Made by a program: the position numbers and the translations under genes. The notes under the pieces were generated by a model. That model saw only the letters and a list, made by a program, of their open reading frames with translations. It had not been told where the DNA came from and ran no database searches. A stretch of DNA of 64,000 nucleotides from Selenomonas sputigena (lineage in GTDB: Bacteria; Bacillota; Negativicutes; Selenomonadales; Selenomonadaceae): contig NZ_CP110383.1 of NCBI RefSeq assembly GCF_026015965.1, positions 591,808 to 655,807 of the forward strand, in the 5' to 3' direction. Within the stretch, counting starts at the first letter, position 1. Every line of letters starts with the position of its first letter. Of the stretch, positions 55,375 through 60,735 are shown in pieces.

Positions 55375-56646
55375 TTACAGAACATTTTTCACTTTACTTG
55401 ATATGATCCGCACTGGTATGGTTTGCATCTCCTGTCGGTTTCCGATGTAGCGGAGCGTCGTGTCGTAATCGGAGTGTCCCGCACGCGCCATGATGTCGTT
55501 CGGTGCCGCTTGCGACTCGCCGAGCATGGTGAGATTCGTGTGCCGCATGCAGTGAAAGTCGAAATTATGGACGCCGAGTTCACGGATTCGCTTGCATTGA
55601 TAGCTCATTGTGCAGGGTTTGATGTACTTGCCGTTCTGCTGCGTGCATATGATATCAATGCGTGGCCCGGGGGCGGGATAGCCTTTTTCCAAAGAGACAA
55701 TCTTCTTGATGTCGCGCCCCTGATAATCTTTTGCGGGGACGATGTAGTTATAGAAATAATCCTCTCCGTAGTAGAGTTCGTTTTCCGCCTGCTGACGTTT
55801 CCATCGCTGAAAGAGCGGAAGGATGACCTGTGCATCGAAAGAGAGTGTTCGGCAGCTGCTGTCGGTCTTCAGGTCGCAGACATAGTGCAGGCTGTGCTTG
55901 CCCCGCATGGCGAGGCGCTGGATCTGCTGCGTGATGGCGAGTGTCATGCGTTGCAGATCGCAGTTATCCCACGAGAGACAGATCGTCTCGCCGATCCGCG
56001 TACCGAAGTACAGCCCGATGATGAACGGCATGTGGAATGTCGTGCCAAAGGGATGGCGCTGAAAAATCATAGCGAGTTCGTTGTCCTCGATACGACGCCG
56101 CGGCTGTCGTTGGCTGAGAGGGGCGAATTCTTTGCCCGGCACATTGATAAGCCGGGCAGGGTTTTCGCGCAGCAGCTCCATTGGGTATATTGCATAGTCG
56201 AGAGCCGTGGAGATGTTGCTGAGGATTCGGCTGACCGTTTCGTAAGCATATCCGTCTTTGCGCTTTTGCTGAACAAATTGGTCGATGATGGCCGGTGTGA
56301 GAGAAGAGAGGCGGTATTCGCCGAGTGCCGGCTTGATGTGCAGTCGGATGTTCTTCTCGCGCAGCTCCAATGTGTTGTTTCGCGCGGAAAGGCGCGTACG
56401 TTCATACCAGATATCCAAGTAGTCTGCAAAGCTGATGCTGGCATCGTTTTTCTTGGTGCCGGCGCCGATGTATGCGTTGTACGCTTCGACGCCTGCGAGC
56501 CTTGCGTCCTGCTCTGTGGCATACCCGCCACATTCGCCGCGACAACGTTTGCCGCCGACTTTCGCTTTCTCGAAATAGTACGACCAAGAGGAGCCGCGCT
56601 GCTTCACGCGGACGTGATCGAGGGGATTGTTCGATTTTTTTGCCAT
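55375..56646 (-). CDS. int: Phage integrase, tyrosine recombinase
   Basis: Integrates and, with an excisionase, excises the prophage. The 423-residue protein has an N-terminal AP2-like arm-binding part, a SAM-like core-binding domain (about 70-165) and a catalytic domain with R217 in GTRIGE, K260 in LKTDSS, H365-x-x-R368 in HCMRHT, H391 in AGHSDYDTT and Y400. All catalytic residues are present. The gene reads outwards from the prophage towards its left end. Its ribosome site lies in a hairpin. Confidence 0.93.
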   Translation of the reverse strand: MAKKSNNPLDHVRVKQRGSSWSYYFEKAKVGGKRCRGECGGYATEQDARLAGVEAYNAYIGAGTKKNDASISFADYLDIWYERTRLSARNNTLELREKNIRLHIKPALGEYRLSSLTPAIIDQFVQQKRKDGYAYETVSRILSNISTALDYAIYPMELLRENPARLINVPGKEFAPLSQRQPRRRIEDNELAMIFQRHPFGTTFHMPFIIGLYFGTRIGETICLSWDNCDLQRMTLAITQQIQRLAMRGKHSLHYVCDLKTDSSCRTLSFDAQVILPLFQRWKRQQAENELYYGEDYFYNYIVPAKDYQGRDIKKIVSLEKGYPAPGPRIDIICTQQNGKYIKPCTMSYQCKRIRELGVHNFDFHCMRHTNLTMLGESQAAPNDIMARAGHSDYDTTLRYIGNRQEMQTIPVRIISSKVKNVL

Positions 56647-57305: not shown

Positions 57306-58016
57306 CTATTTTGCGTTCTTCCAGTCAGGGCCTTGTTTGGTGTGCATTCCCGCAGTGATGTATTGATCGTAAAGCCATTTAGAGCGGTCGCCTACGTATT
57401 GCGCAGGTGCGACCCCGATCGAGATGTTATACGTATCAAATAGACTACCGTAGGAATCTTTTGTTGGCATGGTAAATGAGCTGTCGTGGATAACGACATT
57501 GGAGGAGTATCGTCTTATCAGTGTGTCCGCCATATCGAGTGCGGCTTTTTTGTTGGTCGCTGGATTCACAACAAGAGCCATCGTGACTTCCTTTTTGTCA
57601 TGATCCACCTTGATAGAGAGGTCTTTTACCAGTGGGTAGTTTTGTGGATTCTTGAATTCGGCTATTGTGTCCCCTACTGCTTGATTTATCGCAGAGGTGG
57701 CCTTTTCCTTGGCTTTTGCTGCCTGTTCAGCCTGTGCTTTCTTTTCGGCTTCTGCTTGTTTATTTGAGGGAGTCTGTGCTTCGGTTTTCGTATTGTTTAC
57801 AACGTGTTGTTCACTAGTAGTAGGGTAGGATACGTTATTTGATTTGGTTATGGTAAGAAGGATTGCAAATATGATTGTTGCAATAAGATAGATGACAGAG
57901 ATCTTTTTTCGCTTCCACTCAGGTTTTTTTCCAAATGTTCCCCATGCAGGGTTCACTAGGGATATGAGTAGCATAATCAAACACACGAGATAAACCGCAT
58001 AAAAGAAATTATGCAT
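57306..58016 (-). CDS. Prophage membrane protein with coiled coil
   Basis: I do not recognise a family. The start at 58016 follows AAAGGATG. The 236-residue protein has two N-terminal membrane segments (about 3-22 and 40-56), an Ala/Lys/Glu-rich coiled coil (about 80-115) and a C-terminal globular domain (NPQNYPLVKDLSIKVDHDKK...). It lies next to the repressor on the lysogenic strand, where superinfection-exclusion or other lysogenic-conversion genes are often found; this role is only an inference. Confidence 0.65.
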   Translation of the reverse strand: MHNFFYAVYLVCLIMLLISLVNPAWGTFGKKPEWKRKKISVIYLIATIIFAILLTITKSNNVSYPTTSEQHVVNNTKTEAQTPSNKQAEAEKKAQAEQAAKAKEKATSAINQAVGDTIAEFKNPQNYPLVKDLSIKVDHDKKEVTMALVVNPATNKKAALDMADTLIRRYSSNVVIHDSSFTMPTKDSYGSLFDTYNISIGVAPAQYVGDRSKWLYDQYITAGMHTKQGPDWKNAK

Positions 58017-58042
58017 AAAAATCATCCTTTCCAATATTAATA

Positions 58043-58723
58043 TTACAACGTCACATTATACATAACGACCTTACCGACGAGCTGCAAGTCCTCGCAGTTG
58101 TCGTAGCTGAAAACGATGTCACGATAGGACATATCGCTGCTGTCAGGGCGGAAGATGAACTCTTGGCGCTCTTTGTCGTTGAAAAATCGTTTGACCGTGT
58201 AATCGCCGTTATTGCTGACGACCACAATATCGCCATTCTTAATTTGCGGCAGCTCGATTTTTGTGAGCACGGCAATGATTGCGCCGTTACGGATGACGTT
58301 GTTCATGCTCTCTCCGTTGACGGGCATAAGAATGATGTTTTTGTTACGTGCGTACCGCCCGAGCATACAATCGGGAACGGTCACGAGCGGCAGATCGGTC
58401 AGTCCTTCGATGGTAGTGAGACTTCCTGCAGCGACCGAGGCAGGCACATAACGATAGGCGGAGGAGGGGAGAGCTGCTGGTTCTTCTGCTGGAGTGTCTT
58501 CCAGAAAATAGCTTTTCCCTACATCAAAGTAATCGGCTATCTGCTGGATAAGTCCCATTGTTCGCGGCATAGATTTTCCCAACACCCATTTTCCTACGGT
58601 ACTTTCGGAAACATTGAGGATTTTTGCTAATTCATTTTGATTTAAATCGTGCTCTTTAAGCATTTTTCTAAGGCGTTCGCTAAATAGATCACGCGCTTTT
58701 AGCGTCTTGTCAGATAGAGACAT
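58043..58723 (-). CDS. CI-like phage repressor, HTH and S24 peptidase
   Basis: Maintains lysogeny. The 226-residue protein has an XRE HTH (LNQNELAKILNVSESTVGKW, about 28-47) and a LexA-like S24 domain with the cleavage bond A99-G100 in VAAGSL, the Ser nucleophile S139 in NGESMNN and the Lys K178 in YTVKRF, so RecA-stimulated self-cleavage on DNA damage is expected. Its promoter faces the early promoter across the operator region. Confidence 0.92.
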   Translation of the reverse strand: MSLSDKTLKARDLFSERLRKMLKEHDLNQNELAKILNVSESTVGKWVLGKSMPRTMGLIQQIADYFDVGKSYFLEDTPAEEPAALPSSAYRYVPASVAAGSLTTIEGLTDLPLVTVPDCMLGRYARNKNIILMPVNGESMNNVIRNGAIIAVLTKIELPQIKNGDIVVVSNNGDYTVKRFFNDKERQEFIFRPDSSDMSYRDIVFSYDNCEDLQLVGKVVMYNVTL

Positions 58724-58746: not shown

Positions 58747-58775
58747 AGTATAGAATAAAATTCTAGTTTTTGCAA
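58747..58775 (-). promoter_or_regulatory. Repressor promoter with operator O1
   Basis: On the minus strand TTGCAA (58775-58770), a 17-base spacer and TATACT (58752-58747). Operator O1, TAGAATAAAATTCTA (58751-58765), fills the spacer and touches the -10 box. Confidence 0.8.
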
Positions 58776-58804
58776 TATAAATATAGAAATGTAGAAAAAT
58801 ATTC

Positions 58805-58833
58805 TTGACACTAGAATCTAATTCTATTATACT
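58805..58833 (+). promoter_or_regulatory. Early (lytic) promoter with operator O2
   Basis: A perfect TTGACA (58805-58810), a 17-base spacer and TATACT (58828-58833). Operator O2, TAGAATCTAATTCTA (58812-58826), fills the spacer exactly. Confidence 0.88.
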
Positions 58834-58861
58834 GATATCAGAAAAGAAACGGGAGGTGATT

Positions 58862-59062
58862 ATGTTGTTCCCCAAGATATCCCTGAAAGCAGCTCGTGTA
58901 AACGCGAATCTCACGTTGTTGGAGGCTGCAAAGCTTTTGGGAGTGGGAAAAGACACTCTTATAAAGTGGGAACGTAATCCAGATCGCGTTCAACCACGTT
59001 ATCAAAAACGCATATCTAAGGTGTATGAAATGCCTATTGATGTGATTTTTTTTGGGATCTGA
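58862..59062 (+). CDS. Cro-like HTH protein
   Basis: The 66-residue protein is a small XRE-type HTH protein (TLLEAAKLLGVGKDTLIKWE) with a short beta tail (MPIDVIFFGI), the first gene under the early promoter, as Cro is. GGGAGGTGATT precedes the ATG at 58862. It would bind the same operators as the repressor. Confidence 0.82.
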   Translation: MLFPKISLKAARVNANLTLLEAAKLLGVGKDTLIKWERNPDRVQPRYQKRISKVYEMPIDVIFFGI

Positions 59063-59063
59063 C

Positions 59064-59078
59064 TAGAATCTAATTCTA
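59064..59078. promoter_or_regulatory. Operator O3 after the cro-like gene
   Basis: TAGAATCTAATTCTA is identical to O2 and lies directly after the stop of the cro-like gene, 238 bases from the O2 end. Confidence 0.8.
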
Positions 59079-59132: not shown

Positions 59133-59339
59133 GTGCAGGTAGATGTCGATCTTTTGCGGAGAACGCTGAAGTTTCACGGACTGACGAATGAGATTGCAGG
59201 CAAAGCGCTCGGTGTATCACGAGATGCCTTCCAGCGAAGGCTTCGCGAAAGGTCGTTCCGCATTGATGAGATTCATATGCTCATGCGAACGGTACCACTC
59301 ACAAAAGACGAGGTGTGGCAAATTTTCTTCAGCGAATGA
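59133..59339 (+). CDS. Small HTH protein, early prophage gene
   Basis: A 68-residue DNA-binding-type protein (LTNEIAGKALGVSRDAFQRRL as HTH). GTG at 59133 follows GAGGGGGAGGG at some distance. Similar DUF739-like proteins occur just after cro in Firmicute phages. Function unknown beyond likely DNA binding. Confidence 0.65.
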   Translation: MQVDVDLLRRTLKFHGLTNEIAGKALGVSRDAFQRRLRERSFRIDEIHMLMRTVPLTKDEVWQIFFSE

Positions 59340-59388: not shown

Positions 59389-59535
59389 TTACTTCTTGCC
59401 GCGCGCGGGGCGCTGTGAAAGTGCACTTCCTGCAGCGGTCTTAGATGCCTTGCTGGTGCGTCCGTCGCGCAACACCTTGGACGCTACACTTGCCGCGCGA
59501 GCAGAGGTTACCTTGCTACTATTCGACTTTGCCAT
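59389..59535 (-). CDS. Small basic Ser/Ala/Lys-rich protein, 48 residues
   Basis: On the minus strand a perfect AAGGAGGTGAATCTGC precedes an ATG that opens MAKSNSSKVTSARAASVASK and continues with KVLRDGRTSKASKTAAGSAL to RGKK. It is very basic and probably disordered. It has its own terminator and runs against the early genes. I do not recognise a function; nucleic-acid binding is plausible from composition. Confidence 0.7.
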   Translation of the reverse strand: MAKSNSSKVTSARAASVASKVLRDGRTSKASKTAAGSALSQRPARGKK

Positions 59536-60058: not shown

Positions 60059-60370
60059 ATGGAGATCGCAGCGATGGAATGTGTCATCGCCAGTGCGATC
60101 GAGCGTGCGGCAAGAGCAATGACCGTGGTGCGGGAGCGTCAAACACCAGACGAACTCCTGACGGTGATCGAGGTCGCCAAGGTGCTCGGCGTCGGCAAGA
60201 ATTACGCAAATATGCTGGTTCAGTCCGGTATCATCCGAGGGATCAAGCTCAACGGCATGAAGGTTCGCCGGCGGGAGCTTGAGCGCTGGATGGAAGAGAT
60301 GGAGGGGATGGATCTGGAAGATCCTCGGAATCCGGTTCCCATCGAACGAGAGGAGAGACGTGTGGTATGA
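60059..60370 (+). CDS. Excisionase-type HTH protein
   Basis: The 103-residue protein has a MerR-like HTH_17 motif, LLTVIEVAKVLGVGKNYANM then GIIRGIKLNGMKVRRRELERW, as in Xis and related DNA-binding adaptors. It could be the excisionase or an early regulator. CGGAGGTG precedes the ATG. It overlaps the next gene by 4 bases. Confidence 0.78.
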   Translation: MEIAAMECVIASAIERAARAMTVVRERQTPDELLTVIEVAKVLGVGKNYANMLVQSGIIRGIKLNGMKVRRRELERWMEEMEGMDLEDPRNPVPIEREERRVV

Positions 60371-60735
60371 GAATATACTTGGCGCATCCGTACACAGGCG
60401 ACGAGGAGAAGAACCGCGAACGTGCGCTGCGGGCGGAGGAGCTGCTGCGCAAAGCAACGCCGCAGACGGCGTTTTACAATCCCGCCGGCAGGCTGTCCGA
60501 CTCGAAACAGTTTGCAGCGATGTCCTACGCCGGCATCATGGCGCACTGCCTGGGCGAACTCACACGATGCGACGGTATCGTGCTTTGTGGCGACTGGGCA
60601 AAGAGCACGGGCTGCCGCATCGAAGCACAGGTGGCACAACGGTTGAGCTTACCGCGCTGGTACGGAGTGGATGCCTACATCAAGATGTGGATGCGCGTCG
60701 AGATCGAGGCGCAGTTCGAGGAGGTAGTCTTATGA
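60367..60735 (+). CDS. DUF4406-type nucleoside deoxyribosyltransferase-like protein
   Basis: The 122-residue protein has MRIYLAHPYTGDEEKN, YNPAGRLSDSK, CDGIVLCGDWAKSTGCRIE and AQVAQRLSLP, the DUF4406 pattern related to nucleoside 2-deoxyribosyltransferases. A role in nucleotide metabolism is suggested but not shown. It starts as ATGA on the previous stop. Confidence 0.82.
   Translation: MRIYLAHPYTGDEEKNRERALRAEELLRKATPQTAFYNPAGRLSDSKQFAAMSYAGIMAHCLGELTRCDGIVLCGDWAKSTGCRIEAQVAQRLSLPRWYGVDAYIKMWMRVEIEAQFEEVVL

What the first reader, a model, noticed from the sequence alone, without database searches (positions are those of the whole stretch)
58747..59078. Phage switch with operators placed exactly in promoter spacers
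The 6-3-6 palindrome TAGAAT-N3-ATTCTA fills the 17-base spacer of both face-to-face promoters and recurs a third time after the cro-like gene, identical to O2. The layout is simple and symmetrical: O1 on the repressor promoter, O2 on the early promoter, O3 238 bases on for possible looping.
Basis: partly seen in the sequence, partly recalled or inferred. Interest (0 to 1): 0.6.

Follow-up and report, generated by a model that had tools for sequence, protein, structure and literature searches.

The report
Prophage lysogeny switch with distal operator
This is the on/off switch of a dormant virus sitting in a bacterial chromosome; it is of a known general kind, but its operator layout recurs in many phage switches that use different operator sequences, so the layout seems to be kept while the letters change.

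Summary
Largely confirmed, with corrections. Three perfect TAGAAT-N3-ATTCTA palindromes lie at 58751-58765 (O1), 58812-58826 (O2) and 59064-59078 (O3); the 2.61-Mb genome holds no other perfect copy. They flank a divergent pair: an HTH/S24 CI-type repressor (minus strand) and a 66-aa Cro-like protein (plus strand). The promoters diverge, they do not face each other; O2 sits exactly in the lytic 17-bp spacer, but O1 runs 2 bp into the repressor promoter's -10; and an imperfect fourth site (O4, 58792-58806) lies 20 bp upstream of O2 on the -35. Twenty other loci carry O3-type and (19 of them) spacer-centred O2-type sites. Lactococcus phage BK5-T has a matching layout on record, so this is a new member of a known kind. 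The more unusual result is comparative: without assuming a motif, 42 of 64 clusters of Cro-family loci repeat their promoter operator near the 3' end of cro, and this distal operator is centred 197 +/- 1.5 bp from one cro codon in 38 of 41, across about a dozen operator sequences. Binding, and what O3 does (elongation gate or loop anchor), are inferred only.

The parts
58043..58723 (-). CI-type repressor, 226 aa, N-terminal HTH and C-terminal Peptidase S24
   Evidence: PF00717 2e-14, PF01381 1.7e-08; PHROG 4 transcriptional repressor 5e-35. Self-cleavage not tested.
58747..58775 (-). repressor promoter, TATACT -10 (58752-58747) and TTGCAA -35 (58775-58770), spacer 17
   Evidence: consensus match 9 of 12; O1/promoter register recurs in relatives
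58751..58765 (.). operator O1, TAGAATAAAATTCTA, on the spacer and first two bases of the repressor promoter's -10
   Evidence: match at -62 from O2 (9 of 12 letters or more) in 10 of 19 family loci and at -72 in 4; here -61
58792..58806 (.). imperfect operator O4, TAGAAAAATATTCTT, ending on the lytic -35, 20 bp upstream of O2
   Evidence: 2 mismatches; match at -20 in 12 of 19 family loci and at -30 in 5
58805..58833 (+). lytic (early) promoter, TTGACA-17-TATACT
   Evidence: 11 of 12 consensus matches; same register with O2 in 20 of 21 loci
58812..58826 (.). operator O2, TAGAATCTAATTCTA, concentric with the lytic promoter spacer
58862..59062 (+). Cro-like protein, 66 aa
   Evidence: PF01381 2.1e-08; tblastn matches in 99 phage records, 30-52% identity in the rows listed
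59064..59078 (.). distal operator O3, identical to O2, one base after the cro stop
   Evidence: O3-type site with <=2 mismatches in 21 of 21 family loci including the window; motif-free tests

Best explanation
This is the lysogeny switch of an integrated temperate phage. In the lysogen, CI dimers bind O2 and O4, over the spacer and the -35 of the lytic promoter, and shut it off (inferred from position; repression through a spacer operator is experimental in phage mv4, which has a homologous Cro). At higher CI levels O1, on the -10 of the repressor promoter, limits CI synthesis (inferred). The Cro-like protein probably competes for the same sites after induction (inferred), and S24-type self-cleavage of CI is the likely trigger (inferred from the domain). 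O3 is an auxiliary operator for the same protein or proteins. My first choice for O3, about 0.5, is a second gate: repressor bound just past cro stops leaky transcription from entering the downstream early genes. Second choice, about 0.4, is an anchor for repressor-mediated DNA bridging. Shown here: the sites, their positions and conservation, and their covariation with the repressor's recognition helix. Not shown: any binding or regulation.
For: Divergent HTH/S24 repressor and small HTH protein, integrase and excisionase-like genes nearby. All three perfect sites of the genome lie here. Site layout kept in G144 and G177, found by protein and not by motif, in G352, L055 and L059-L062. O2 at spacer positions 2-16 in 20 of 21 loci. 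Repressor loci with the STVGKW helix have a TAGAAT site in 13 of 14; 0 of 50 with ...SNW helices do. G025, same S24 part at 67% but another N-terminal half, has no site with <=2 mismatches in the 3.4 kb fetched. The distal copy follows the promoter operator of its own phage: 42 of 64 clusters, controls 0, 1 and 2 of 64. mv4 operator between -35 and -10 represses strongly (PMC10848424, passages). For the gate: the gene after cro is annotated as an antirepressor in 5 of 8 named phages, and as Xis followed by Ant in mv4.
Against: No binding data. The promoter scan alone is at chance level. Three of the 21 family repressors have a variant helix (L063 SSIGKW, L072 SAVGKW, L076 STVNKW), L072 and L076 with somewhat changed operators, but L063 with ordinary ones. 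O1 is degenerate or out of register in several relatives (L068, L072, L075, L078, L086). In the window the gene after O3 is a 68-aa protein without a Pfam or PHROG match, not an antirepressor, which weakens the gate argument here. A weak helical-phase signal in O2-O3 spacing (p about 0.017 at 10.5 bp, uncorrected) leans towards a loop.
Confidence: 0.82

Rival explanations
1. O3 is a loop anchor: CI oligomers bridge O3 to O2, O4 or O1, as proposed for hexameric CI of TP901-1 with OR, OL and OD.
For: A hexameric-wheel looping model exists for TP901-1, which has a distal operator (PMC4941734, passages; PMC7250872 introduction). O1-O2 and O4-O2 distances alternate by one helical turn, 62/72 and 20/30, so neighbouring sites care about DNA face. 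O2-O3 phase p about 0.017 at 10.5 bp, 0.002 at 11.0 (39 switches).
Against: Phase p is 0.16 at 10.0 bp, 0.10 for the 17 TAGAAT members, 0.052 for one per operator type; relatedness is uncorrected. Distances 582 and 789 bp in proPhi6 and BK5-T. O3 is tied to cro codons, not to O2.
Confidence: 0.4
2. O3 acts as RNA: a hairpin or weak terminator after cro rather than an operator.
For: Palindrome just after a stop codon; in L025 and L062 the arms extend further (sequences).
Against: Not listed as terminator-like. It repeats the promoter operator of its own phage whatever that sequence is, and lies inside the coding end in some phages (L086, L091, L093, L096 and others). RNA folding was not run.
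Confidence: 0.05
3. O3 is a leftover copy with no present function, kept because it is embedded in the cro end.
For: Its distance to the cro codons is expected to be stable, since coding DNA tolerates few indels; some Cro-family clusters have no detectable copy (22 of 64).
Against: In the TAGAAT family it usually lies after the stop codon, where indels and substitutions are free, yet it stays at <=2 mismatches in 21 of 21 loci. In other phages its sequence matches the new promoter operator.
Confidence: 0.08
4. A host regulator, not the phage proteins, reads the palindromes.
For: None found; not excluded by binding data.
Against: No other perfect site in the 2.61-Mb genome, and the site follows the repressor's recognition helix across phages.
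Confidence: 0.03

Closest known systems
Lactococcus phage BK5-T switch (OR1, OR2, OR3 annotated as putative repressor sites in AF176025)
   Same: Divergent cI and cro; OR3 on the -10 of the repressor promoter, OR2 42 bp further, OR1 in the lytic promoter spacer; Cro homologous (35.5%, E 8e-8). Its cro end has a palindrome at 197.0 bp from the codon-5 equivalent that matches OR1 in 14 of 16 letters, in the relaxed test; it is not annotated in the record stretch shown.
   Different: Operator sequence CACCGAATAAAATCGGTG; OR2-OR1 28 bp against 20 here (O1-O4 41 bp here); OR1 also covers two bases of the -35; lytic promoter about 590 bp before cro, so the distal site is 789 bp from OR1. The strict pair test found none in BK5-T.
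Lactobacillus phage mv4 switch (rep/tec)
   Same: Homologous Cro (42.9%, E 9e-9); operator between -35 and -10 of the lytic promoter, with strong repression measured (PMC10848424, passages); cro-end palindrome at 198.0 bp, 250 bp from an upstream match of 14 of 16.
   Different: Other operator sequence. A cited title (Coddeville 2007, seen only in that reference list) speaks of single independent operator sites. Strict pair test found none.
Lactococcus phage TP901-1 switch (OR, OL, OD), and phage phi13 with OR, OL, OD
   Same: Several CI sites, one distal: OD lies in the distal part of mor (PMC7250872, introduction); measured here OL-OD 248 bp. phi13 CI binds OR, OL and OD (PMC8516035, section 3.2). 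CI C-terminal parts are exchanged between relatives there too (PMC7250872).
   Different: MOR shows no BLASTP match to this Cro; OL is centred 34 bp downstream of the promoter spacer centre, not in it; other operator sequence; TP901-1 CI has no peptidase domain (PMC7250872).
Lactococcus phages Tuc2009 and r1t
   Same: Read by eye: Tuc2009 has CCAC-N5-GTGG centred in the lytic spacer and a like sequence near the cro end; r1t repeats its operator at the end of tec.
   Different: Tuc2009 Cro gives no BLASTP match and the automatic pair search listed nothing for it; r1t Tec matches over 42 aa at 36%, distance 401 bp.

Membership tests
BK5-T/mv4-type CI-Cro lysogeny switch | divergent CI-type repressor and homologous small Cro | tested here: met
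BK5-T/mv4-type CI-Cro lysogeny switch | one operator in the lytic promoter spacer, one on the -10 of the repressor promoter, one between | tested here: met
   O2, O1, O4 against OR1, OR3, OR2; the middle spacing differs, 20 against 28 bp
BK5-T/mv4-type CI-Cro lysogeny switch | operators bound by the repressor and by Cro | not testable with these tools
   needs gel shift; indirect support from helix-operator covariation
TP901-1-type CI-MOR switch | MOR homologue | tested here: not met
   no BLASTP alignment with E <= 100; profile comparison not run
TP901-1-type CI-MOR switch | distal operator at the end of the small gene | tested here: met
   O3 one base after the cro stop; TP901-1 OD straddles the mor stop
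TP901-1-type CI-MOR switch | composite OM-OR sites for a CI-MOR complex | not tested
   OM motifs were not searched for in the window
S24 (LexA/CI-type) self-cleaving repressor | Peptidase S24 domain with HTH | tested here: met
   PF00717 2e-14, PF01381 1.7e-08
S24 (LexA/CI-type) self-cleaving repressor | RecA-stimulated cleavage on DNA damage | not testable with these tools
   experiment needed

The most novel reading that the evidence does not exclude
The window belongs to a widespread class of phage switches in which geometry is frozen while specificity turns over: the lytic operator is concentric with the promoter spacer and a distal operator stays 197 bp from one cro codon, through about a dozen operator sequences and at least two kinds of repressor C-terminal part. 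Repressor, Cro and all operator copies would then have changed specificity in concert, and the distal operator would have a general function that has not been recognised as a class feature.
Probability: 0.5. Interest if true: 0.6.

Novelty: new member of a known kind. Interest (0 to 1): 0.45.

Why it matters
As a single switch it is ordinary. The comparative result gives a simple rule for finding operators in unstudied temperate phages of this Cro family (look in the lytic promoter spacer and 197 bp after the codon-5 equivalent of cro), and a dataset for asking how phage immunity specificity evolves when two proteins and three or four DNA sites must change together.

Tried and rejected
Helical phasing of O2-O3 looked striking with the first eight loci (250-253, 260-262, 272) but blurred with more (244, 247, 249, 255, 256). 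Rayleigh p for 39 switches: 0.16 at 10.0 bp, 0.017 at 10.5, 0.002 at 11.0; 0.10 for 17 TAGAAT members at 10.5; one per operator type (15, list typed by hand) 0.19, 0.052 and 0.01. Relatedness is not corrected and several periods were tried, so I treat it as weak. The first version wrongly used O1 for L071, L048 and L212.

The first motif-free pair test was tied to the cro stop and gave 39 of 64 clusters, with controls 0, 0 and 1 of 64 and 37 of 384 cross-locus pairs, most probably pairs from one operator family. The second, tied to the cro start, gave 42 of 64 with controls 0, 1 and 2. The strict pair test failed in 7 of 8 named phages; a relaxed test then gave convincing sites in BK5-T, mv4 and proPhi6 as well as Rg507T2_2, and none in AQ113, jlb1, T25 and Lv-1.

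Ascertainment: L055 and G352 were found by demanding perfect O1 and O2, L059-L062 by demanding perfect O2 and O3. G144, G177 and the Cro-profile loci were found by protein.

Rows dropped: the survey used 80 loci kept of 186 plus 14 others. L050, L052, L211 and L213 were set aside because the frame read ended early; some more fell out near contig ends (88 scored, 85, 64 clusters). L058 is not among the 41, as it had no profile start residue; its start was set from alignment A4. In one search the stretch scanned was fixed before position 2001, which is the wrong stretch for L174 and L204, so those two loci are untested. Operator types were grouped by eye.

DNA search of phage records found nothing. 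No solved structure matched the Cro at E <= 0.01; the repressor matched 2kpj and 3op9. No fold prediction was run.

No paper stating a cro-end operator at a fixed register across phages was seen in the listings of searches (title-and-abstract listings apart from four papers opened: PMC7250872, PMC8516035, PMC4941734, PMC10848424, of which sections or passages were read). The library lacks most subscription papers, so this is weak evidence; and PMC7250872 says the overall topology is shared by many lactococcal and streptococcal switches.

Full report
OBSERVATION. Three perfect TAGAAT-N3-ATTCTA palindromes lie at 58751-58765, 58812-58826 and 59064-59078 and nowhere else in the 2,613,980-bp genome; two other places have one mismatch. 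O2 is concentric with the 17-bp spacer of TTGACA/TATACT. O1 is not confined to its spacer: it runs two bases into the -10 of the repressor promoter. The promoters diverge. A two-mismatch site (58792-58806) ends on the lytic -35, 20 bp upstream of O2. The promoter scan alone is at chance level (5 sites, 3.9 expected).

GENES. Minus strand: 226-aa repressor with HTH_3 and Peptidase S24. Plus strand: 66-aa HTH_3 protein. An integrase (55375-56646) and an excisionase-like HTH gene (60059-60370) fit a prophage.

SAME SWITCH ELSEWHERE. A protein search of 189 genomes of the family gave G144 (repressor residues 1-82 at 70%, Cro 74%) and G177 (residues 10-77 at 64%, Cro 60%). Both keep the layout: O1-O2 62 bp, O2-O3 262 and 250 bp, O3 just after the cro stop; in G177 O2 has two mismatches. 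In 380 genomes of the class the O1-O2 pair was found in 3, the window's own, G144 and G352; G352 also has O3. Viral contigs gave L055, L059-L062, and a Cro profile gave more. Of 21 loci read side by side, the window included and L064/L065 near-identical, 21 have an O3-type site with at most two mismatches and 20 have O2 at spacer positions 2-16. O1 is degenerate or out of register in L068, L072, L075, L078 and L086. Over 19 loci, offsets from O2 with at least 9 of 12 letters matching: -20 in 12, -62 in 10, -30 in 5, -72 in 4; the alternatives differ by one helical turn. Where the cro frame runs past O3 (L070, L086), O3 keeps its distance from the cro start.

WHO READS THE SITES. Eight aligned repressors all carry STVGKW; among the 21 loci L063, L072 and L076 have variants. 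Of 68 profile-found repressor loci, 13 of 14 with STVGKW have a TAGAAT site with at most one mismatch upstream, against 0 of 50 with ...SNW helices, 0 of 1 VSRQTVGKW and 0 of 3 unread (L174 and L204 were scanned in the wrong stretch; many loci are close relatives). G025 keeps the S24 part at 67% but has another N-terminal half and no site with <=2 mismatches in the 3.4 kb fetched. The C-terminal part is exchanged: S24 in the window, L059, L060 and L061; none in L058, L025 and L026. Next to the repressor of L058 and L062 is a short IrrE/ImmA-like protein above the Pfam cut-off; that of L026 is below it and that of L025 has no Pfam match, though all four share PHROG 20936.

MOTIF-FREE SURVEY. 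In 64 clusters of Cro-family loci (85 loci before removing near-duplicates) a palindrome upstream of cro is repeated 150-290 bp after the cro match start in 42, against 0, 1 and 2 of 64 for three control stretches. By my count 17 of these 42 are of the TAGAAT family (20 of the 64 clusters) and 25 are among the other 44, with about 14 operator types grouped by eye. In 30 of 42 the chosen upstream copy is centred within 0.5 bp of the spacer centre of the best promoter, in 32 within 2 bp; five TTAGCT-type switches have it about 32 bp downstream; in three the best pair used O1, and a weaker copy at 0 exists; L130 (+10) and L049 (no good promoter) do not fit. The distal copy is centred within 1.5 bp of 197 bp from the codon-5 equivalent in 38 of 41; L130, L131 and L214 lie outside. 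Cro length varies with sd 14.1 bp. A palindrome score alone finds >=5 of 7 pairs centred at 196-198 bp in 49 of 64 clusters, against a mean of 5.2 and a maximum of 19 in 81 windows elsewhere; without the TAGAAT family 32 of 44 against 4.0 and 16. There is also a rise near 180 bp over the coding end, which I take to be coding composition. The stable distance to cro codons is partly expected, since coding DNA tolerates few indels; that the sequence there follows the promoter operator of its own phage is the informative part.

KNOWN SYSTEMS. BK5-T's record marks OR3, OR2 and OR1 in corresponding places (42 and 28 bp apart; here 41 and 20). In a relaxed test its cro end has a matching palindrome at 197.0 bp, 789 bp from OR1; proPhi6 at 197.0, 582 bp; mv4 at 198.0, 250 bp; Rg507T2_2 at 196.5, 249 bp; AQ113, jlb1, T25 and Lv-1 have none that convinces (strict test positive only for Rg507T2_2). 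For mv4, repression through an operator between -35 and -10 is experimental (PMC10848424, passages). TP901-1 has three CI sites with OD in the distal part of mor, a topology said to be shared by many lactococcal and streptococcal switches (PMC7250872, introduction). Hence: a new member of a known kind.

MECHANISM. Repression of the lytic promoter at O2 and O4, and self-limitation at O1, follow from position and from mv4. O3 has no promoter of its own in the scan. A fixed-length loop is disfavoured by the range of distances; a tolerant loop is not excluded. The gene after cro is an antirepressor in 5 of 8 named phages, and Xis then Ant in mv4; its leak would harm a lysogen, which favours a gate. 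In the window, however, the next gene is a 68-aa protein without a family match.

LIMITS. All statements on binding are inferred.

Noticed in passing
59389-59535 (-): 48-aa gene opposite to the early genes, matching PHROG 5079 of unknown function (2.8e-16), with a promoter-like TTGATT-17-TATAAT at 59598-59570.
   Followed up: no
59133-59339 (+): 68-aa protein after O3 with no Pfam or PHROG match; by eye it resembles the 74-aa protein at L025 2335-2559.
   Followed up: no
L024 1498-2466 (-): Repressor with the window's S24 part (67% identity) joined to an unrelated N-terminal half that looks like two HTH segments: a natural domain swap.
   Followed up: partly
59046-59053 (+): Run of eight T in the codons for the conserved IFFG end of cro, about 10 bp before O3; by eye a like run stands in L058-L062 but not in G144 or G177.
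   Followed up: no
L158, L184, L205, upstream of the repressor: Switches with ...SNW helices show, by eye, TATTACTT/AAGTAATA repeats instead of TAGAAT sites.
   Followed up: no
57306-58034 (-): 242-aa protein next to the repressor with only weak matches (SPP1 holin below cut-off, PHROG 25932 of unknown function).
   Followed up: no
60367-60735 (+): Early gene matching DUF4406 and a nucleoside 2-deoxyribosyltransferase PHROG.
   Followed up: no
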